Part shown: piece after piece, positions 4,872-18,900 of the stretch
Layout: each line of letters opens with the position of its first letter
Numbering within the stretch: position 1 is the first letter of the stretch
Assembly: GCF_014304815.1 (NCBI RefSeq)
Contig: NZ_CP047958.1
Location: 930,001 to 994,000, forward strand
DNA from: Synechococcus sp. MIT S9220
GTDB taxonomy: Bacteria; Cyanobacteriota; Cyanobacteriia; PCC-6307; Cyanobiaceae
DNA: 64,000 bases
Direction of reading: 5' to 3'
Notes under the pieces: model-generated
Told to the model about the DNA's origin: nothing
What the model saw: only the letters and a program-made list of their open reading frames with translations
Databases searched by the model: none
Position numbers and translations under genes: made by a program

Positions 4872-5102
4872 ATGTCTGACGCCTGGCTGGAAGACCCCAA
4901 GACCCATTGGGCGATGAGGTTCCATCAGCAATCAAAAACACTTGATGGAGATGTGCAGGTCGTCGTGGAAAACGGCAGACCCATGCCTCATAGCCAGCCA
5001 GCTCTGATCAAGTCACGCATCCATATGGCTTATGAGGATGCAGTGTCTCTCTACCAAGAGTTGCAGCAGATTGGCTGGATGCATTGCCCAGCCTTTTGGT
5101 AA
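4872..5102 (+). CDS. DUF1651 family protein
   Basis: A 76-residue protein showing the DUF1651 layout: WLEDPKTHWAMRFHQ, then VVVENGRPMPHSQPALIKSR, then a helix AYEDAVSLYQELQQIGW near the end. The central VENGRP and the terminal LxxxGW are the hallmark motifs. An in-frame GTG six bases upstream is possible but ATG at 4872 is simpler. The family is common in marine Synechococcus and Prochlorococcus with no known function. A second, more divergent copy lies at 2094-2366. Confidence 0.8.
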   Translation: MSDAWLEDPKTHWAMRFHQQSKTLDGDVQVVVENGRPMPHSQPALIKSRIHMAYEDAVSLYQELQQIGWMHCPAFW

Positions 5103-6229: not shown

Positions 6230-6436
6230 GGGACGACATCGATTCAGACATCCGTGTCATCAGTGTCCTCCTGCAAGACAAGCTCTCCTGCCGCTGGCAC
6301 GAATGCTCTGTCCGCACAGCTCTGTTGGATGTCTGAGGGGTGAATCACTTGTCCTGTGCAACTTATTCATGTTCCTGGATAGGTATCTCTATGGCGGCGG
6401 TGATTGTGAAATAGCACTTGCAGGTCAGGGACGGGT

Positions 6437-6484
6437 GACTGGGGCTTGTGGATGGGGCGAGTCATCCATCTCTGCGGAGTTGTC
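6437..6484 (+). pseudogene. DUF3104 relic, middle fragment
   Basis: The plus-strand reading DWGLWMGRVIHLCG matches the centre of DUF3104 (DWWMGQAIHCGG in the complete gene at 10349-10618), and the nucleotides match over the WMG and IH codons. After GVV the similarity ends and the frame becomes a hydrophobic run with no DUF3104 character. It is the westernmost of the DUF3104-like pieces and the weakest case. Alternative: chance similarity. Confidence 0.45.
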
Positions 6485-6541
6485 TTTTCACCAATTCTGC
6501 TCTACTTGCTAGAACTGCTGGTGAGACTCGTTTCTTTGAGC

Positions 6542-6748
6542 ATGAGCGATTACTGGGCAAACCGCATGACTGTTCCCGTCGTGCGTGCCAAAGAGTTCGC
6601 CGAGCTATCAGCTTGTTATCGGGAAGCTCTGAAGGACCGTGGTGCTTTGGATTGCACTTACAAGCTTTGGTCAGAGATGACTGCTGCCGAGAAAGCAAAA
6701 GTTGCCAAGAGATTGCCTAGTACAGCTAATAATTGGTATGTCAATTGA
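6542..6748 (+). CDS. small hypothetical protein
   Basis: A 68-residue soluble protein starting MSDYWANRMTVPVVRAKEF, with charged helices (AELSACYREALKDRG, then EMTAAEKAKVAKRLP). The ATG at 6542 is chosen because the longer in-frame start would add the DUF3104 relic and a hydrophobic run. No family recognised; it may belong to the accessory region. Confidence 0.45.
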   Translation: MSDYWANRMTVPVVRAKEFAELSACYREALKDRGALDCTYKLWSEMTAAEKAKVAKRLPSTANNWYVN

Positions 6749-7905: not shown

Positions 7906-8056
7906 CTCGACTCCAAGCCATCCGACAATGAAATAGTTCCGTGTCCAGAGCCTGGCGGTATTGAGTTGCCAACCGATGCAACATTGCGCCTATCACCGCA
8001 ATGCCTCAGCCGATCCACACTCCATGCAGGATTCCGATAGTTAGGCCCGAGAACTA

Positions 8057-8209
8057 GACAAATATTGGTGGATGGGAGAGGTGATCCACTGCGGCGGCGC
8101 TGTCCTTGATCCAAAGACCTACAACCTGTGCCAGATCGCCGATGTGGATTCCGGTGTGATCCGCTGGGTCAATGCCGACCTGGTCAGCCATGTGATTCCG
8201 GACTGCTGA
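8057..8209 (+). pseudogene. DUF3104 relic lacking its N-terminus
   Basis: Reading DKYWWMGEVIHCGG, then QIADVDSGVIRWVNADLV, then SHVIPDC and TGA, this 51-codon stretch matches residues ~42 to the end of the complete DUF3104 protein at 10349-10618. A stop at 8042-8044 closes the frame on the left and the usual first ~40 residues are not recognisable upstream. An ATG at 8072 could still start a 45-residue product, so expression cannot be excluded. Confidence 0.7.
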
Positions 8210-8364
8210 GAGTCTCTGACGAAGGTTGGGTAAACCGTCAGCAATGAACTCTCACCGCCCAAGCCTCTATTTCTACGGTCGATGAGTCGTATTGATGAAG
8301 GATGCGACAGCTCGAGGCAGGAAGTGATGACCCTGCCTTTTTCCTAATCGCATCACTAAGCGCC

Positions 8365-8433
8365 ATGCTTTATCTCTTAATCGCTGTTACGTGGGTTGCG
8401 GTGCTTTTTGGCATCGCCAAAAGCGAGAAATAG
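8365..8433 (+). CDS. possible 22-residue membrane peptide
   Basis: ATG to TAG encoding a 22-residue peptide with a single membrane span (LYLLIAVTWVAVLFGIA) and a basic/acidic tail KSEK. The shape is that of tiny single-span membrane proteins, and a terminator-like hairpin follows 40 nt downstream. There is no clear ribosome-binding site, and with this length chance cannot be excluded. Confidence 0.35.
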   Translation: MLYLLIAVTWVAVLFGIAKSEK

Positions 8434-8472
8434 GTAGGCAAAAAGAAACCACCGCCAAAGGCAGTGGCTCCT

Positions 8473-8516
8473 AAAACTCAAGGGTGTGTGTCCTTGTTTC
8501 CACCCCTGTGAGTTTT
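8473..8516 (+). terminator. hairpin terminator
   Basis: AAAACTCA (8473-8480) pairs with TGAGTTTT (8509-8516), extended by GGGTG/CACCC inside small bulges. The 3' arm ends in four Ts. It probably ends the transcript carrying the 22-residue peptide. Confidence 0.55.
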
Positions 8517-8597
8517 CTCCTCACAGCTTCAAGTTACCGATAGAACGTAGGAGTGCAACCCTCTATTACCGGCCAAGTGAAAGGAATAAGCGGCTGC

Positions 8598-8603
8598 TAT
8601 ACC
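8598..8603 (+). promoter_or_regulatory. -10 element of the Yfr1-like RNA
   Basis: TATACC in the context GCTATACCT lies six bases before the base chosen as RNA start (8609). No strong -35 box is visible, which is common for cyanobacterial promoters. The assignment depends on the RNA being real. Confidence 0.4.
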
Positions 8604-8608
8604 TGAGG

Positions 8609-8681
8609 CAGTTGGTCTCCTCACCGGGACTCCAACTCCTCACACCCTCTGAAGACCTGTGAAACATCGGGTCTTTTTTTT
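8609..8681 (+). ncRNA. yfr1: Yfr1-like small regulatory RNA
   Basis: Roughly 73 nt with Yfr1 architecture: a 5' hairpin (GTTGGTCTC at 8611-8619 with GGGA and CCAAC at 8626-8636, two bases bulged), then the 11-mer ACTCCTCACAC at 8635-8645, which is the ultraconserved core of cyanobacterial Yfr1, then a short spacer and a 3' hairpin with eight Ts. In known Yfr1 the core is single-stranded and pairs with the translation-start regions of outer-membrane channel mRNAs; here its first two bases can pair in the 5' stem. Yfr1 is usually described in the guaB-trxA region; neither gene is near, so this may be a relocated or additional copy. The RNA start is inferred from the -10 box. Confidence 0.65.
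8652..8681 (+). terminator. intrinsic terminator of the Yfr1-like RNA
   Basis: AAGACCTG (8652-8659) pairs with CGGGTCTT (8668-8675, one T-G pair) around an 8-nt loop, and an eight-T run covers 8674-8681. Confidence 0.8.
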
Positions 8682-8687
8682 GGCTAG

Positions 8688-8732
8688 TGGCTCAATACCG
8701 ACCTGGCCGACCACATCCTTCCTGCGATCTGA
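8688..8732 (+). pseudogene. DUF3104 3'-end relic (tail only)
   Basis: The frame WLNTDLADHILPAI followed by TGA is the last 14 codons of DUF3104. Bases 8712-8732 are identical to the end of the complete gene (10598-10618), and 8688-8706 are identical to the tail at 9538-9556. It begins six nt after the T-run of the Yfr1-like RNA. No start codon precedes it. Confidence 0.7.
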
Positions 8733-8868
8733 GGGGGTATGGCCAACTTCACAGCACTGGCTGAGATGGACCGTCAAGACACTCGCTGATGCCGGTTATC
8801 CCTAACGAATCACCTGCGCACCAAGCGGCAGGTATTTCCGACAATCGATTTCTGTTGGAACTAGGGAT

Positions 8869-9093
8869 ATGGACTTGCTTCAACGAATGAGAGTTCTTGG
8901 TAGCGGGTTAGTCATTGCCGCATATTTCATTACTCTCCACCTTGATGTAGTGACTGGCGTAATAGTCCACCTAACGGCAATGAGTATATCTGTGCCTTAC
9001 TTCATCAAATCCAAGGCTTGGGATGTCGTGATAATGATGACGTTCCTCATGACGATCGGATCTGGACGTCTGATTACAGCAGCTATTTCTTGA
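8869..9093 (+). CDS. small polytopic membrane protein, hypothetical
   Basis: A 74-residue protein with two or three membrane segments (residues ~9-24, ~27-45 and ~52-70) and a basic LLQRMRVLG start. The motif SVPYFIKSKAWDVVIMM links the second and third. Similar small membrane proteins occur in picocyanobacterial accessory regions and, from memory, in cyanophages; this was not checked. It lies 126 nt upstream of the HLIP gene and may share its transcript. Confidence 0.65.
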   Translation: MDLLQRMRVLGSGLVIAAYFITLHLDVVTGVIVHLTAMSISVPYFIKSKAWDVVIMMTFLMTIGSGRLITAAIS

Positions 9094-9219
9094 CTGCTTA
9101 TGAGTATTAGGACTTACTGGTGTGCGCTACTCGGTTGAGATGGCAGTGAGGGAAACGTCTTCTCCGATACCACGACCAGTTGTTACTTTAGTTAACAATG
9201 CTGGATAAGCTCCTTGACG

Positions 9220-9450
9220 ATGTCCGAATCAGCTTCCAAGTTCACGCCTTACCCATACAAATCTTTCAGTGAAAAGCTGAATGGAAGAGCCGCAATGCTC
9301 GGACTTGGTATTGGTTTGGCTGTCGAAGCCTTGACCGGTAAGGGCATTATCGAGCAAGTCAGCATCTTCAACCAAGCATCTACGATTGATTTATCCGGCG
9401 TCAATAAATTGCTGGGTGTGATGTTCAGCTGTGTTGGAATCTTCAGCTAA
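9220..9450 (+). CDS. hli: high-light-inducible protein (HLIP)
   Basis: A 76-residue one-helix chlorophyll a/b-binding-like protein of the thylakoid membrane. The family motif ExxNGRxAMxG is present as EKLNGRAAMLG, followed by a helix LGIGLAVEALTG; Glu and Asn/Arg are the chlorophyll ligand and charge-pair positions. HLIPs bind chlorophyll and carotenoid and dissipate excess energy during high light and other stress. Start: ATG at 9220; an in-frame TTG six bases earlier is less likely. The C-terminal extension (FNQASTIDLSGVNKLLGVMF) is longer than in minimal HLIPs. A strong terminator follows at 9498. Confidence 0.85.
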   Translation: MSESASKFTPYPYKSFSEKLNGRAAMLGLGIGLAVEALTGKGIIEQVSIFNQASTIDLSGVNKLLGVMFSCVGIFS

Positions 9451-9497
9451 GTGGTCCTGGTGGTGACGACATCTGAGCCACGACGTTTCAACGCAAT

Positions 9498-9524
9498 GCC
9501 CCGCTCTTATGAGTGGGGCTTTCT
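9498..9524 (+). terminator. intrinsic terminator after the HLIP gene
   Basis: GCCCCGCTC (9498-9506) pairs with GAGTGGGGC (9511-9519, one mismatch) across a four-base loop, followed by TTTCT. Confidence 0.75.
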
Positions 9525-9537
9525 AGTGGTGATGCTC

Positions 9538-9582
9538 TGGCTCAATACCGACCTGGTCACCCATGTGATTCCTGACTGCTGA
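9538..9582 (+). pseudogene. DUF3104 3'-end relic (tail only)
   Basis: WLNTDLVTHVIPDC followed by TGA: the last 14 codons of DUF3104, starting 13 nt after the HLIP terminator. The final 21 bases (9562-9582) match the relic at 8189-8209 in 20 of 21 positions, while 9538-9556 are identical to 8688-8706, so this tail is a mosaic of two others. Confidence 0.7.
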
Positions 9583-9674
9583 AGACAGGTAGTTCCACCG
9601 ATGTGCCCTGGGATACACAGCAGGTAGAAATGGTTCAAGGTCAGAGGTCACCGGGAGTCACCTCAACGACCTTC

Positions 9675-9698
9675 AGGGGCCCAGTGGGGCCCCTTCTT
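9675..9698 (+). terminator. perfect 8-bp GC hairpin, terminator-like
   Basis: AGGGGCCC (9675-9682) pairs perfectly with GGGCCCCT (9687-9694) around a four-base loop; a TCTT tail follows on the plus strand. No gene is seen immediately upstream of it in the 90 bases after the previous relic. Confidence 0.55.
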
Positions 9699-9704
9699 AA
9701 TGGG

Positions 9705-9755
9705 ATTCGCTGGGTCCATGCCGACCTGGTGACCCACATCTTGCCCAGCTTCTGA
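9705..9755 (+). pseudogene. DUF3104 3'-end relic
   Basis: IRWVHADLVTHILPSF followed by TGA corresponds to the final 16 codons of DUF3104 (IRWVNADLVTHILPAI in the complete copy). It begins about ten bases after the GC hairpin. There is no in-frame start or N-terminal part. Confidence 0.7.
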
Positions 9756-9776
9756 TTCCGTTCAATCCTGGCTGGT

Positions 9777-10010
9777 TTAGAACTTGTAGAACTCGCAGAA
9801 CTCCTTGATTGCCCATCGCTTTTGAAAGTTCGCATCACCTTTCTCAGGCTCAAGCTTTAGCCCAAGGCGATTGAAGTAGTCGGCGGCCAATTCGTCGCTG
9901 GCATAGGGTCCTTCGTCTACACATTGAGCGCAGGTGTCGCGCTTTGATTGGTAGCCCGCCAGCAGCAGCGAGGCAACGGCAACGGCAGCAATGGCGGATA
10001 TTCGTTTCAT
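9777..10010 (-). CDS. small secreted or lipid-anchored hypothetical protein
   Basis: A 77-residue protein with a classic signal sequence: MKRIS, then a hydrophobic core AAVAVASLLLAG, then YQSKRD. The region resembles a lipoprotein lipobox but has Tyr where Cys is needed, so secretion or a membrane anchor is more likely. The mature part has a C-x2-C (CAQC, residues ~27-30), an acidic stretch and an aromatic C-terminus. Its ATG overlaps the stop of the upstream zinc-finger gene (ATGA), implying coupled translation. Function unknown. Confidence 0.6.
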   Translation of the reverse strand: MKRISAIAAVAVASLLLAGYQSKRDTCAQCVDEGPYASDELAADYFNRLGLKLEPEKGDANFQKRWAIKEFCEFYKF

Positions 10011-10183
10011 TTATTGCATTCCTCCTCCGGCCCCCACTTGAGCAGCTTTCCGTTGAACGTGGTTTCGCCAGGGATGCCATGGATCTCCCATAGGTGCTGT
10101 CTTAAGCCGACTAACTGCCAGGCATTTCCAAACTGCTGGCCGCAGTGAGGGCAGAAGCTCTTGAGGGGGTCTCTTTTGGACAT
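10007..10183 (-). CDS. small C2H2-type zinc-finger-like protein
   Basis: A 58-residue protein starting MSKRDPLKSF and carrying CPHCGQQFGNAWQLVGLRQH followed by LWEIH. The C-x2-C ... H-x4-H spacing with an aromatic residue and a Leu between is that of a classical C2H2 finger, rare in bacteria but present in small phage and accessory-genome proteins. The ATG at 10183 is preferred; a longer in-frame start adds 14 residues. Its TGA overlaps the ATG of the secreted-protein gene, so the two form an operon. Confidence 0.6.
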   Translation of the reverse strand: MSKRDPLKSFCPHCGQQFGNAWQLVGLRQHLWEIHGIPGETTFNGKLLKWGPEEECNK

Positions 10184-10348
10184 GAGCTCAGCTTGGCCTG
10201 AGGCCTGCTCAAAAACATCCCTCATTCAGGGGAATCTCAGCCGTACTCAGGGCACCATCCGGCCTGGTCTTGCCAAGCGGGGCTCCAGTGTCACCGTGTT
10301 GCAGGCCTGGGCAGTCGTGGCTAGTACTGGTGTCCTATTTTTGTGGGT

Positions 10349-10618
10349 ATGTCGGTTGATCGCGGGGTCTACAACTCGCCCGAGTTAGAGAGGTCGGTCT
10401 TTCTGGATGTGGTTCCAGGGATGACGGTCATCGTCCAGCACGACCTTCAGATCGGAGAGAAGCGCGGCAAGGATTGGTGGATGGGGCAGGCCATCCACTG
10501 CGGGGGAGCTGCTCGCGACCCCAAGGTGCACAACCTTTTTCAAATAGCCGATGTGGATTCCGGTGTGATCCGCTGGGTCAACGCTGACCTGGTGACTCAC
10601 ATCCTTCCTGCGATCTGA
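10349..10618 (+). CDS. DUF3104 family protein, complete copy
   Basis: An 89-residue protein starting MSVDRGVYNSPELERSVF. The DUF3104 core follows in order: PGMTVIVQHDL (a beta strand), DWWMGQAIHCGG, DPKVHNLFQIADVD, then IRWVNADLVTHILPAI at the C-terminus. This reads like a small beta-barrel, SH3-like fold, but that is inference. The family is picocyanobacterial and of unknown function. A GTG six bases upstream is an alternative start. It is the only complete copy here; five partial copies lie at 6.4, 8.1, 8.7, 9.5 and 9.7 kb, all in the same orientation. Confidence 0.8.
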   Translation: MSVDRGVYNSPELERSVFLDVVPGMTVIVQHDLQIGEKRGKDWWMGQAIHCGGAARDPKVHNLFQIADVDSGVIRWVNADLVTHILPAI

Positions 10619-11302: not shown

Positions 11303-11333
11303 TAAGCAGCAGACAAACATCCCGATTTGAAAA

Positions 11334-11353
11334 CCCCGCACTAGGCGGGGCTT
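11334..11353 (+). terminator. hairpin terminator
   Basis: CCCCGC (11334-11339) pairs with GCGGGG (11345-11350), preceded by AAA and followed by CTT. It lies just after the 33-residue membrane peptide gene. The T-tract is short. Confidence 0.6.
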
Positions 11354-11484
11354 GATTGGTGTGAGGTGTTTTGTCGGGAGATCGATAGCGACTACTCAAC
11401 GCCCCCTGCTTTTCCCTTTCGGGTCTTGTATAGCTCTCAGCCTCGCTTTCATGGCCTCAGGCTTCCCGACAAGGAATGGATTAA

Positions 11485-13326: not shown

Positions 13327-13413
13327 CGGAGAGGGTCGGATTCGAACCGACGGTGAACTTGCGCCCACGCTGGTTTTCAAGACCAGAGCCATAAACCACT
13401 CGACCACCTCTCC
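13327..13413 (-). tRNA. tRNA-Ser (UGA)
   Basis: An 87-nt class II tRNA. Acceptor GGAGAGG at the 5' end pairs with CCTCTCC at the 3' end, with discriminator G. The anticodon loop reads CTTGAAA with anticodon TGA, a long variable arm follows, and the T-loop is GGTTCGAATCC. CCA is not encoded. It is probably the insertion site of the accessory region to its left. Confidence 0.95.
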
Positions 13414-15960: not shown

Positions 15961-18190
15961 ATGGTTTGTTCTCAGCGCCTGGTGGGGCGACTGTTCACGC
16001 GAGCATTGACCCGACCGTTCACGCGTGCGTTGAGATTTCTGCTGGTTGGTCTGGTGGCATTGGCCTTGAGCATTGCCCCACCTCTGCTGAATGTGAAAGC
16101 CACTGAGGCTTTTCAGCAGCAACCCATGACCTCTAAGGGTTTAATTCCGATTGAAGAGCAGCCGTTTTATCCGCTGCTGCTGAAGTCTTCCGAAACTTGG
16201 AGTGATGTCGTACTTGATCAGGTGGTGGGCGATAGCCCTCGAACCACCTTGCTGAACTTTTATTCCGTGATGGCGGATGTTGGTCTAAGGGCCGATCGTC
16301 TTGGTCAGAGATCTTCCGCCAAGAAACAGTCACGTCAGGAACAGATTGACGACACAAATTTGTTGTTCGCTCTGGCTGTTAAGGCACTGGATTCCAGCTC
16401 AATTCCCAAGAGCGTTCGCGATGACATGGCCGATGAGGCAGCGATTCAGCTCAAGCATGTGCTCGATTATGTGTTCACTCACAGCAGGCAGTTGATTGAA
16501 GTCCCCGATGTGGAGGGGATGAAAGAGCTCAATGACCGACGTTCAACGCCGACAAATTCATGGCGCATTCCTGGAACGGCAGTCACGCTCACCTCGGATC
16601 TTGATGATGATCCGGAGAATGAAAGTTTTTATTTCTCTGCGTCAACCGTGTCATCGATCCGCTCGATGTACGACGAGATCAGAACTATCCCAGAGATTCA
16701 ACAACCTTTCGCCACCCCACGTTTCTACTCAGATTTCATCCACACTCCCGGCTATCTGGTACCACCAGATTGGTATCTAGCTCTTCCAAAGAGCTGGCGT
16801 GGCTTGTTCGAATGGCCAATCGGTGATCAGACGCTTTTTCAGGTTTTTTGCGCAGCACTCTTGATCGGTGTGTACGGGTTCATCTATCTGCGCTTGCTGC
16901 GGATGCTGTTTAACACTTACAAATCTGGCGCGCATCGAGTCGAAAATGATCGCTTGATCTTTCAACTCGATTCTTTGGCCTGGAAGCGGGTTTTGATTGT
17001 TCTGCCCGCGCTGCCTCTCACTTATGCCACTGAACAGCTGATCGATAACTTTCTCAATTTCACGGGATTTCCACTCGTGGTGGCCATCTATTCCTTTTAT
17101 GTGATCTGGTATTTCTCGGCCAGTGTTCTCGTCTTCTTTTTATTCGAAGCGGTTGGTCGAAGCAGCTCTGAGTTCCTCGCACGGGTTCGTGGTGGTGAGT
17201 CTCCGATTCGATTGCGCAGGATCACCAGTCTGGTGATGCCAATCAGTCGCGTCGTCGGCGCATTGGTTTCGGTCGTGCTGATTTATCGGCTGCTGCTCCT
17301 GCTGGGTCTCCCTTCCAGCACCGTGCTGGCCTTTTCAGCCGTACCAGGTCTCGCTATCGGTCTCGGAGCTTCCAAGCTGCTCGGCAATCTGTTTGCTGGT
17401 TTGTCGATCCAAACCGATCGTCCTCTGCGGGTTGGTGAATTCTGCGAAGTCGGAGGCAATCTCGGCTTCGTGACCAAGATCGGTCTGCGTTCAATGGAAC
17501 TGCAAACGCTGGAAAGCCGCGTCACGATCCCCAATTCCGTTGCGGATGAAGCCACGATCGTGAATTATTCAAGACGCGGTTGTCAGCTGGGAGCGTCAGC
17601 CGGTGCAAGGGCTTGAGTTGCGCTTGCCGATTCGTGATCCTCTCTCACCCTTTCAGCTGGATGAGCTGATGCGTCAGGCCAGGCGCATGGTTGCCGCACC
17701 TGAAACGCTGCAGTTGGAGGTGGAACTGCATGAACCTGTGGTGAGTCTCGAATCATTGGAAGACGGCACGAATCAACTGATTGTGTTTGTGATGGTTGAA
17801 CTTCACGGTTGGACAGCATTTTTGAAAGTGCGTGAAACGCTGCTAGTAGCCCTGGAAGAGTTACTGGAACGCGTTTCACTCAGTGAGCTTGTGGTGGGTG
17901 TTGCCTACAGCACAACTCCTCAACAGTTGGAACGCATTCCGGAGCTGATGCGATCAGTGGTGGCAGAAGATTCTCAGCTTGATTTCGAGGCCTGTCGGCT
18001 TGTGCGCATTTCAGCGTTCAGCTACGACCATGAATTGGAGATCCGTTCATGCCACGCCATGCATGACGACTTTGAAAACAGTTTGCACCGCCTCAATCGC
18101 AGGATCCTTGAGGTGCTCTCGCAGCATCGCATCGAGATCCCTTTCCCCACACAGACCTTGGAGCTGCATTCCTCTGAATCAAGTCAATGA
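15961..18190 (+). pseudogene. MscS-family mechanosensitive channel, frameshifted
   Basis: Two overlapping frames make one MscS-like protein of about 740 residues. The first (15961-17616) has a signal or membrane segment (LLVGLVALALSIAPPLL), a long extracytoplasmic N-terminal domain, several membrane helices, and the MscS signature: GLGASKLLGNLFAGLSIQTD, then RVGEFCEVGGNLGFVTKIG, ending at IPNSVADEATIVNYSRR. The second frame (open from ~17563 to 18190) continues with SWERQPVQGLELRLPIRD and the cytoplasmic C-terminal domain. A one-base shift between about 17563 and 17603 separates them, while both halves keep normal composition. This is either a recent inactivating mutation or a sequencing error; no slippery heptamer for programmed shifting is seen. 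The 3' part overlaps the next gene's ATG (ATGA). Confidence 0.8.
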
Positions 18191-18900
18191 TTCTGCGCAT
18201 TCCAGAACCTGAAGTGATGAACGACCCGCTGCAGGTGGATGCCTACGCAGCAGCAGATTTCAGTGGAACGGACCAAGCGATGGTCGAGCGAATTGCCACG
18301 TTGCTTCACTCATCCGGCGCATCGTTCAAGCCTCAAGCACGTTTGCTGGATCTCGGATGCGGACCAGGAAATATCACGGCTCGTCTGGCCCAGAGATGGC
18401 CGAAGTGTTCAGTGCTCGGACTCGATGCGGCTGACCGGATGATTGCTGTGGCGGATGATCGCCGTCGTGTAGCCGGTTTGTCGCGCGAGCGCCTTCGCTA
18501 TGAGCAGGCTCTGCTGCCGATTCACCAGGCGGATCAACCAGCGGATCTGATTGTCAGCAATAGCTTGCTGCATCACCTCCACGACCCTCATCAGCTTTGG
18601 TCGTCATTGATCCCACTGGCAGCGCCTCACTGCCTGGTGCTGCATCGCGACCTTCGCCGCCCAGACAGCGAGGCAAGCATTGATCGACTTTGTCAGTGCC
18701 ATGTCGCTGACGCTCCGTTGGTGCTGCAACGGGATTACAGGGCATCGCTGCATGCGTCCTTCTCGTTGGAGGAGGTCAAAGCGCAGTTGCTGCTTGCTGG
18801 TCTGCAGCATCTGCAGGTGGTTGCCGTTGAAGATCGCTACCTGGAGGTGAGTGGCTGGATCACGGGCTGTCAGGCTGGATCTGGTCAACGCACACCATGA
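18187..18900 (+). CDS. class I SAM-dependent methyltransferase
   Basis: A 237-residue methyltransferase with motif [17 protein letters not shown] (G-C-G-P-G), motif [13 protein letters not shown], an acidic loop, and motif [17 protein letters not shown]. The DLGCGPGN pattern groups it with small-molecule methyltransferases. It overlaps the mscS-like gene by ATGA and prfC by ATGA, so it sits in the middle of a coupled three-gene run. Substrate unknown. Confidence 0.8.

What the first reader, a model, noticed from the sequence alone, without database searches (positions are those of the whole stretch)
8057..10618. DUF3104 3' end repeated at five places in one orientation, like cassette boundaries
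The last 14-50 codons of DUF3104 recur at 8057-8209, 8688-8732, 9538-9582 and 9705-9755, and as the complete gene at 10349-10618, all on the plus strand. The tails are mosaics: 8712-8732 is identical to 10598-10618, 8688-8706 is identical to 9538-9556, and 9562-9582 matches 8189-8209 at 20 of 21 positions. Three tails begin 6-13 bases after a hairpin or terminator (8681, 9524, 9694). Between the tails sit unrelated small units: a tiny peptide plus Yfr1-like RNA, a membrane protein plus HLIP, and a zinc-finger/secreted pair. Integrative elements that use a gene's 3' end as attachment site leave exactly such duplicated ends. The alternative is repeated duplication of DUF3104 followed by 5' decay.
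Basis: partly seen in the sequence, partly recalled or inferred. Interest (0 to 1): 0.75.

Follow-up and report, generated by a model that had tools for sequence, protein, structure and literature searches.

The report
Gene-end repeats between swapped small genes
In ocean Synechococcus bacteria the last 50 or so bases of one small repeated gene sit as linkers between interchangeable tiny genes; the array is real and recombines at those linkers, but it looks like ordinary shuffling plus decay rather than a dedicated insertion system.

Summary
In detail: five same-strand DUF3104 3' ends with the stated identities. It is genus-wide. A 57-nt tail model matches 27 of 31 genomes. All 15 catalogued neighbouring pairs within 1.5 kb share a strand. 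3'-only fragments outnumber 5'-only ones 40 to 8, although either half is detectable.

Tails go with the small unit downstream. Beside units h and i DUF3104 is eroded stepwise. Decay is real.

It is not everything. All four combinations of two upstream blocks with two downstream units exist. The last ~20 nt goes with the unit where the upstream part does not. Some units lie between DUF3104 and its displaced native end. So recombination occurs inside the 3' end.

A dedicated attachment site is not supported: no fixed left border, no DNA-level constraint, no recombinase found specific to tail-rich genomes, no phage, viral or plasmid hit. The RNA is Cyano-1, not Yfr1. Full copies carry LexA-box-like promoters.

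The parts
6413..6496 (+). possible mid-gene fragment of DUF3104 (profile 15-40; nucleotide model about 80-160), just upstream of a copy of unit i
   Evidence: weak, E 0.47 and 4e-4
6538..6720 (+). copy of unit i (small ORF '..SDYWANRMTVPVVRAKEF..'), which follows full DUF3104 genes in G024 and G016
8000..8056 (-). C-terminal remnant of a small ORF that is complete in the close relative G002; shared flank ends at about 8061
8057..8209 (+). 5'-truncated DUF3104 (left border about position 113 of 273), attached to unit a
8210..8433 (+). unit a: leader and tiny peptide ORF (MLYLLIAVTWVAVLFGIAKSEK, from about 8365); follows a full DUF3104 in G001
8469..8530 (-). Cyano-1 RNA (RF01701), in a dispersed module
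8652..8682 (+). terminator-like hairpin and T-run directly before the tail
   Evidence: read
8679..8732 (+). short DUF3104 3' end (tail) attached to unit c; clear homology from about 8687
8733..9528 (+). unit c: small ORF 8869-9093, HLIP-like ORF 9214-9450, dispersed terminator module (about 9450-9522)
9529..9582 (+). 54-nt DUF3104 3' end attached to unit b
9583..9701 (+). unit b (119 nt, with a terminator-like hairpin near its end); follows a full DUF3104 in G015
9702..9755 (+). 54-nt DUF3104 3' end before a convergent pair of small ORFs
9777..10225 (-). two small minus-strand ORFs (9777-10010 and 10007-10225; the second with sub-threshold zinc-finger matches)
10323..10336 (+). LexA-box-like site AGTACTGGTGTCCT upstream of the complete gene
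10349..10618 (+). complete DUF3104 gene (89 aa)

Best explanation
DUF3104 is a small multi-copy island gene with a LexA-box-like promoter. Its 3' end is a place where small gene units (peptide genes, HLIP plus membrane protein, RNA modules, terminators) are joined and exchanged. A unit joined at the 3' end brings the last ~20 nt of the gene with it and can displace the older 3' end downstream. Repetition gives same-strand arrays of [DUF3104 end + unit]. The copies then lose their 5' part by ordinary deletions, because promoter and start are dispensable while the 3' side is shielded by the next unit. Shown: units are re-used, linkage changes inside the 3' end, native ends lie displaced behind units, and DUF3104 is eroded from its 5' side. 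Inferred: that the exchange is homologous or short-homology recombination between DUF3104 ends (whole copies and 54-nt tails) of resident and incoming DNA, not a dedicated recombinase; and that loss of the promoter explains why 5' ends go first.
For: Same downstream unit behind DUF3104 ends of different length: unit a left borders 113, 222, 2, 188; b 123, 219, 2; c 227, 2; h 2, 157 and an internal deletion. Opposite unit order: a-c in the window, c-a in G002. Four combinations of {terminator-module tail, full gene} x {unit a, unit b}: G002, G000, G001, G015. Among ends without the native terminator, 18 pairs that share the downstream unit but not the upstream sequence have right-tail identity 0.73 vs 0.50 in 2965 other pairs (p 2e-7) and left-tail 0.74 vs 0.72 (p 0.12); in all 38 such unit-sharing pairs the left tail is linked too (0.81 vs 0.72). 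Unit o is 98% identical in G002 and G001 beside gene bodies 78% identical, and lies between CTGCCGAG and the native end GGCTCCAGGGCAATAA. Native end within 1.2 kb downstream of 11 of 74 non-native ends vs 2 of 72 upstream (p 0.017). 3'-only vs 5'-only fragments 40 to 8. Non-first array members full in 1 of 15 vs 29 of 71 isolated ends. Deletion routes seen: GTGATCC direct repeats (G007, G010) and a terminator/gene microhomology (G020). LexA-like box above the null 95% level in 28 of 38 full-length copies.
Against: 54-nt tails sharing only about 30-54 nt of imperfect identity are poor substrates for RecA (recalled), yet the four-combination test places exchange there. In the arrays that hold a full gene it is first in 5 of 6 (6 of 7 with G015:C15, whose tail runs off its contig), as 3'-end integration would predict; one-sided p 0.06 for 6 of 7. 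By eye, 8 of 9 short tails examined follow a terminator directly but 0 of 7 longer array members, which a random process does not predict; four other short tails had no terminator before them and three were not examined. In one search the end-linked identity of full genes (0.79 vs 0.53, 23 pairs) is partly circular, because 19 of the 23 pairs share the native end. Pairs are not independent, so p-values are too small. Several units also occur with no DUF3104 end recognised.
Confidence: 0.55

Rival explanations
1. Pure duplication and decay: [DUF3104 + neighbour] pairs were duplicated or transferred whole, and each DUF3104 later lost its 5' part; no exchange ever happens inside the tail.
For: Full genes before the same units a, b, c elsewhere; graded remnants of DUF3104 beside units h and i; internal deletions at direct repeats; broad spread of left borders.
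Against: Four combinations of two upstream blocks and two units; unit o 98% identical with gene bodies at 78%; right-tail but not left-tail linkage in 18 pairs; a second island gene family shows no strong 3' bias in the fetched loci, 7 vs 5 (several of these are cut by locus ends).
Confidence: 0.22
2. Site-specific integration: the DUF3104 3' end is the attachment site of small non-autonomous cassettes moved in trans by a tyrosine recombinase, as in integrative elements that use gene 3' ends or, loosely, integron cassettes.
For: Same-strand arrays (15 of 15 pairs), displaced ends mostly downstream of the full gene, exchange within the gene's 3' end, displaced native ends. A ~405-aa tyrosine recombinase group occurs in several tail-rich genomes.
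Against: No fixed left border; no excess synonymous conservation in the tail (0.43 vs 0.36, p 0.31) and perfect inverted arms in 11 of 98; that recombinase group is also in tail-poor genomes; no phage, viral or plasmid hit; the window has its full gene last.
Confidence: 0.15
3. The tail is kept because it works for the downstream unit (promoter, leader or RNA processing element), so selection preserves 3' ends.
For: The 4 unit a copies whose match starts at its first base all follow a DUF3104 end (three further partial matches start 130-144 nt in and were not checked); three window tails lie between a terminator and the next unit.
Against: Units g and h read as convergent to the tail (my reading of the alignments), so the tail cannot be their promoter; units i and h persist with only about 20-35 nt of it in several genomes.
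Confidence: 0.08

Closest known systems
Integrative elements that use the 3' end of a gene as attachment site (tRNA-type genomic islands)
   Same: Duplicated gene 3' ends in direct orientation, usually downstream of the intact gene; new 3' codons supplied together with the downstream DNA
   Different: Units of about 0.2-0.9 kb in which no integrase was seen, no fixed core, variable left border, protein gene with many copies
Integron gene cassette arrays
   Same: Interchangeable small units in one orientation separated by related short sites; partners recombine at the site; full DUF3104 copies have a LexA-box-like promoter (integron features recalled)
   Different: No integron integrase identified, the site is a coding 3' end rather than a folded attC, and the sites decay
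Tycheposons (marine cyanobacterial tRNA-integrating elements)
   Same: The locus lies beside tRNA-Ser, with duplicated tRNA-Ser 3' ends in several relatives
   Different: The DUF3104 tails are a separate, much smaller-scale repeat; no complete element was defined here (what tycheposons are is recalled; one search was a listing only)
DUF3104 (PF11302)
   Same: The complete gene and the longer truncated copy match it
   Different: Described as a family of unknown function; multi-copy 3' ends and LexA-like boxes are added here

Membership tests
DUF3104 (PF11302) | Profile match above the curated cut-off | tested here: met
   97.4 bits (cut-off 27) for 10349-10618, 71.7 bits for 8057-8209; the short tails do not reach it
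Integrative element using a gene 3' end | Direct repeats of the gene 3' end flanking the inserted DNA | tested here: met
   15 of 15 neighbouring pairs same strand; displaced native ends
Integrative element using a gene 3' end | One constant core sequence with a constant left border | tested here: not met
   Left borders of clearly truncated ends run from about 55 to 238 of 273; no synonymous constraint, arms perfect in 11 of 98
Integrative element using a gene 3' end | Integrase carried by the inserted unit | tested here: not met
   No integrase match among the window unit ORFs tested; in G001, G002 and G006 integrase matches lie some kilobases from a DUF3104
Integron cassette array | Interchangeable units in one orientation with re-assorted partners | tested here: met
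Integron cassette array | attC sites and an integron integrase | tested here: inconclusive
   Tyrosine recombinases surveyed by Pfam only; no integron-specific model was run; tails lack a conserved inverted repeat
Tycheposon | tRNA-flanked element with tyrosine recombinase and cargo | tested here: inconclusive
   tRNA-Ser 3'-end duplicates in several relatives and an integrase match at G016:1961845 between them; no complete element defined
LexA regulon | LexA-box-like site in the promoter | tested here: met
   28 of 38 full-length copies above the 95% null level, mostly at -24 to -30; binding and induction not testable here
Cyano-1 RNA (RF01701) | Covariance model score above the gathering cut-off | tested here: met
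   54.4 vs 41 bits at 8469-8530 minus
Yfr1 RNA (RF01116) | Score above the gathering cut-off in the stated unit | tested here: not met
   Only a 26.4-bit match (cut-off 38), elsewhere at 11331-11399 minus

The most novel reading that the evidence does not exclude
The 3' end of DUF3104 is the working recombination site of an integron-like cassette system of marine Synechococcus: tiny peptide and RNA genes move between 54-nt coding-derived sites, driven in trans by an unrecognised recombinase, with the head gene under SOS control.
Probability: 0.12. Interest if true: 0.85.

Novelty: new variant of a known kind. Interest (0 to 1): 0.5.

Why it matters
It gives a concrete, testable account of how very small genes (an HLIP, membrane peptides, regulatory RNAs) are traded between island loci in an abundant marine cyanobacterial group: through the shared 3' end of one high-copy gene. 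It also predicts that DUF3104, a family of unknown function, is SOS-induced, which may link unit turnover to DNA damage such as UV.

Tried and rejected
Yfr1 identity of the RNA: rejected. Phage, viral or plasmid origin of DUF3104: no match in phages by tblastn, in viral contigs (24 pattern stretches, 0 confirmed), or in plasmids by blastn; PHROGs has no match for the complete gene. A perfect inverted core TGGGTCA-N12-TGACCCA: attractive in the consensus but perfect in only 11 of 98 ends, with up to one mismatch in 43 of 98. A fixed left border at GTGATCC: several short tails begin there, but at least two arise by deletion between internal GTGATCC repeats and profile borders are pulled to conserved letters, so I do not claim it. 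A recombinase specific to tail-rich genomes: not found; the clustering used a motif filter that kept 36 of 483 ORFs and missed several integrases. Fold of DUF3104: model of middling confidence (pLDDT 75.6), small Tudor/SH3-like barrels among the best matches (Foldseek best E 0.067, VIA best Z 8.2, which can mean only a common arrangement), so no function inferred. Orthology of 8057-8209 with the DUF3104 copy of G002 at the same island: rejected, 76% against 88-92% for the flanks. Literature: 'DUF3104' occurs in 1 paper of the library (its one passage read, on metagenome clustering only). Full-text searches for tycheposons and for cassettes, repeats and islands in these cyanobacteria listed no paper that I recognised as describing this repeat; I saw listings and the starts of abstracts. 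Passages only were read of PMC2518516, PMC7522525, PMC3744912 and PMC3091678. A 48-bp repeat in Prochlorococcus MED4 islands is recalled from memory and did not turn up. On re-check I found that one search was partly circular and replaced it; the odds did not need to change.
Full report
What is there. Searching the own genome with the complete gene finds the ends at 8064, 8688 and 9701 at E 1.3e-5 or better, but not the one at 9529; a nucleotide model of full genes finds 9529 at 2e-5 but 8686 only at 0.2. A 57-nt tail model (39 sequences, these five among them) scores all five at E 2.6e-7 or better in the whole own genome. It finds nine ends there below 1e-6: the five here, two at 754.8-755.1 kb, and full genes at 750.3 and 925.8 kb. 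The RNA in the first unit is Cyano-1, not Yfr1.

How common it is. The tail model matches 27 of the 31 genomes of the genus that are held; seven have 7 to 17 matches, the others 0 to 4. The Pfam profile gave 150 matches in the own and related genomes (40 genomes searched, matches in 24). Of these 93 are about full length, 44 are 3'-only (40 after joining frameshifted pairs), 12 are 5'-only (8 after joining; one of these sits at a contig end and one has its own tail nearby) and 1 is internal. When a third or more of the profile is missing the ratio is 32 to 3. The halves of 42 full genes score 53 bits (5') and 62.5 bits (3') on my own profile, so the bias is not mainly one of detection. The binomial p-values are 3e-6 and 4e-7; related copies are not independent, so they are too small. 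As a rough control, another small island gene family gave 7 3'-only and 5 5'-only pieces in the fetched loci, some cut by locus ends.

Arrays. Of 122 ends in my catalogue, 23 weak or class-B ends and one cut by a contig end were dropped, leaving 98: 35 full, 14 with left border 5-99, 31 with 100-200, 18 above 200. In these, 15 of 15 neighbouring pairs within 1.5 kb lie on one strand, in 12 arrays with spacings of 173-863 nt. Non-first members are full in 1 of 15, isolated ends in 29 of 71 (p 0.015). The full gene is first in 5 of the 6 arrays that hold one, and in 6 of 7 if G015:C15 is added, where the tail runs off the contig. The window is the exception, with its full gene last.

Units go with ends. 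Unit a (tiny peptide) follows a full gene in G001, a 188-border end in G010, a 222-border end in G002 and the 113-border end in the window. Unit c follows a full gene in G002, and unit b a full gene in G015. Reading the alignments by eye: beside unit h, DUF3104 is full in G010, starts at 157 in G020, has an internal deletion in G024, is about 35 nt long in G040 and G012, is about 20 nt long in G016, and is not recognisable in G044 and G008. Beside unit i it is full in two genomes, truncated in one, and reduced to about its last 20-25 nt in five, including the own genome at about 6490-6512. Such short remnants are tentative. Two ends arose by deletion between two GTGATCC repeats inside the gene, and one by a join between a terminator GGCGGGG and the gene's own GGCGG stretch.

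Why decay alone is not enough. (1) The order of units a and c is reversed between the window and G002. (2) A terminator module joined to a short tail precedes unit b in the window and unit a in G002, while full DUF3104 precedes unit a in G001 and unit b in G015: all four combinations, which calls for an exchange inside at most about 54 nt. (3) Leaving aside ends with the native terminator, 18 pairs that share the downstream unit but not the upstream sequence are alike in the last ~20 nt (0.73 vs 0.50 in 2965 other pairs, p 2e-7) but not in the preceding stretch (0.74 vs 0.72, p 0.12). In all 38 such unit-sharing pairs, 20 of which also share upstream sequence, both parts are elevated (0.80 and 0.81). 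An earlier version on full genes (0.79 vs 0.53) is partly circular, since 19 of its 23 pairs share the native end. (4) Unit o is 98% identical in G001 and G002 while the DUF3104 bodies beside it are 78% identical. It lies between CTGCCGAG and the native end GGCTCCAGGGCAATAA, so that by my reading its frame ends with DUF3104's own APGQ, and identity falls off within the terminator. (5) The native end occurs within 1.2 kb downstream of 11 of 74 non-native ends with enough sequence, against 2 of 72 upstream controls (p 0.017) and 2.5% of random windows (up to 5 mismatches of 24).

Why not a dedicated attachment site. Left borders are spread, the tail shows no extra synonymous conservation (0.43 vs 0.36, p 0.31), and a palindromic core is intact in 11 of 98 ends. 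Tyrosine recombinases were surveyed in 16 genus members (with nine other genomes) and in 15 more. The largest group in my partial clustering, of about 405 aa, occurs in four of the seven tail-rich genomes (G000, G010, G015, G024) and in tail-poor ones. No phage, viral-contig or plasmid record carrying DUF3104 was found by the searches made. Some units also occur without a recognised DUF3104 end, and the stretch with Cyano-1 and a terminator module are dispersed on their own.

The locus. The window island lies beside tRNA-Ser and the gene whose segment 13300-15000 I used as flank (a ribonucleotide reductase by recall). G002, the nearest relative by that segment (97%), shares the left flank up to about 8061 and the right flank from 13294; between them only DUF3104 and the terminator module match. 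tRNA-Ser 3' ends are duplicated in several relatives, as expected for an integrative tRNA island. By contig number and length, G002 corresponds to Synechococcus AG-673-F03, G001 to AG-673-A03, G015 to AG-679-A04 and G009 to WH7803. G001, G002 and G015 are 70-80% complete (single-cell origin recalled from their names), but arrays and truncated ends also occur in single-contig genomes (G000, G016).

A regulatory clue. With a matrix from 37 LexA sites listed in passages of PMC3091678, 28 of 38 full-length copies have an upstream site above the 95% level of random windows and 16 above the 99% level, mostly 24-30 nt before the start. The window copy has AGTACTGGTGTCCT at 10323-10336. Passages of PMC3744912 report SOS induction and strong upregulation of island genes by mitomycin C in two marine Synechococcus; I did not see DUF3104 named in them.

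Judgement. I read it as unit exchange by recombination within the homologous 3' ends of a high-copy gene, followed by erosion of the upstream parts. A dedicated cassette system is not excluded and would be far more interesting.

Noticed in passing
window 10323-10336, and upstream of full DUF3104 copies in other genomes: LexA-box-like site mostly 24-30 nt before the start of full-length DUF3104 copies (28 of 38 above the 95% null level), suggesting SOS control.
   Followed up: yes
window 8469-8530 (minus): Cyano-1 RNA; the stretch that holds it is a dispersed module, and most matches of the unit a query in other genomes lie there.
   Followed up: partly
window 11331-11399 (minus): Sub-threshold Yfr1-like match (26.4 bits); the same stretch recurs at up to 97% identity several times in G010 (L258, L259).
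   Followed up: no
window about 9450-9522: A terminator module (GAGCCACGACGTTTCAACGCAATGCCCCGCTC...GAGTGGGG) repeated in many genomes, often followed by TGTTTGCCTGCAGTGG, in four seen cases by a DUF3104 tail, one of them decayed.
   Followed up: partly
window 13327-13413 (tRNA-Ser) and relatives: Second copies of the tRNA-Ser 3' end some distance away in several relatives such as G010, G016, G024 and G003, with an integrase match between them in G016.
   Followed up: partly
L083 and L336 (G002:C7, G001:C1): Unit o appears to be an ORF whose C-terminus APGQ and terminator are the displaced native end of DUF3104 (my translation).
   Followed up: partly
L082 about 17819-18406 (G002:C16, minus): ORF that reads like a serine resolvase remnant, beside an MscL-like gene, inside the variable island (family names recalled, not searched).
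   Followed up: no
window 4883-5079 and many loci: Another small island gene family (W..DPK..W...RPMP...YEDA) with full, 5' and 3' pieces; its 3' end stands in place of DUF3104 before units n and g in some genomes.
   Followed up: partly
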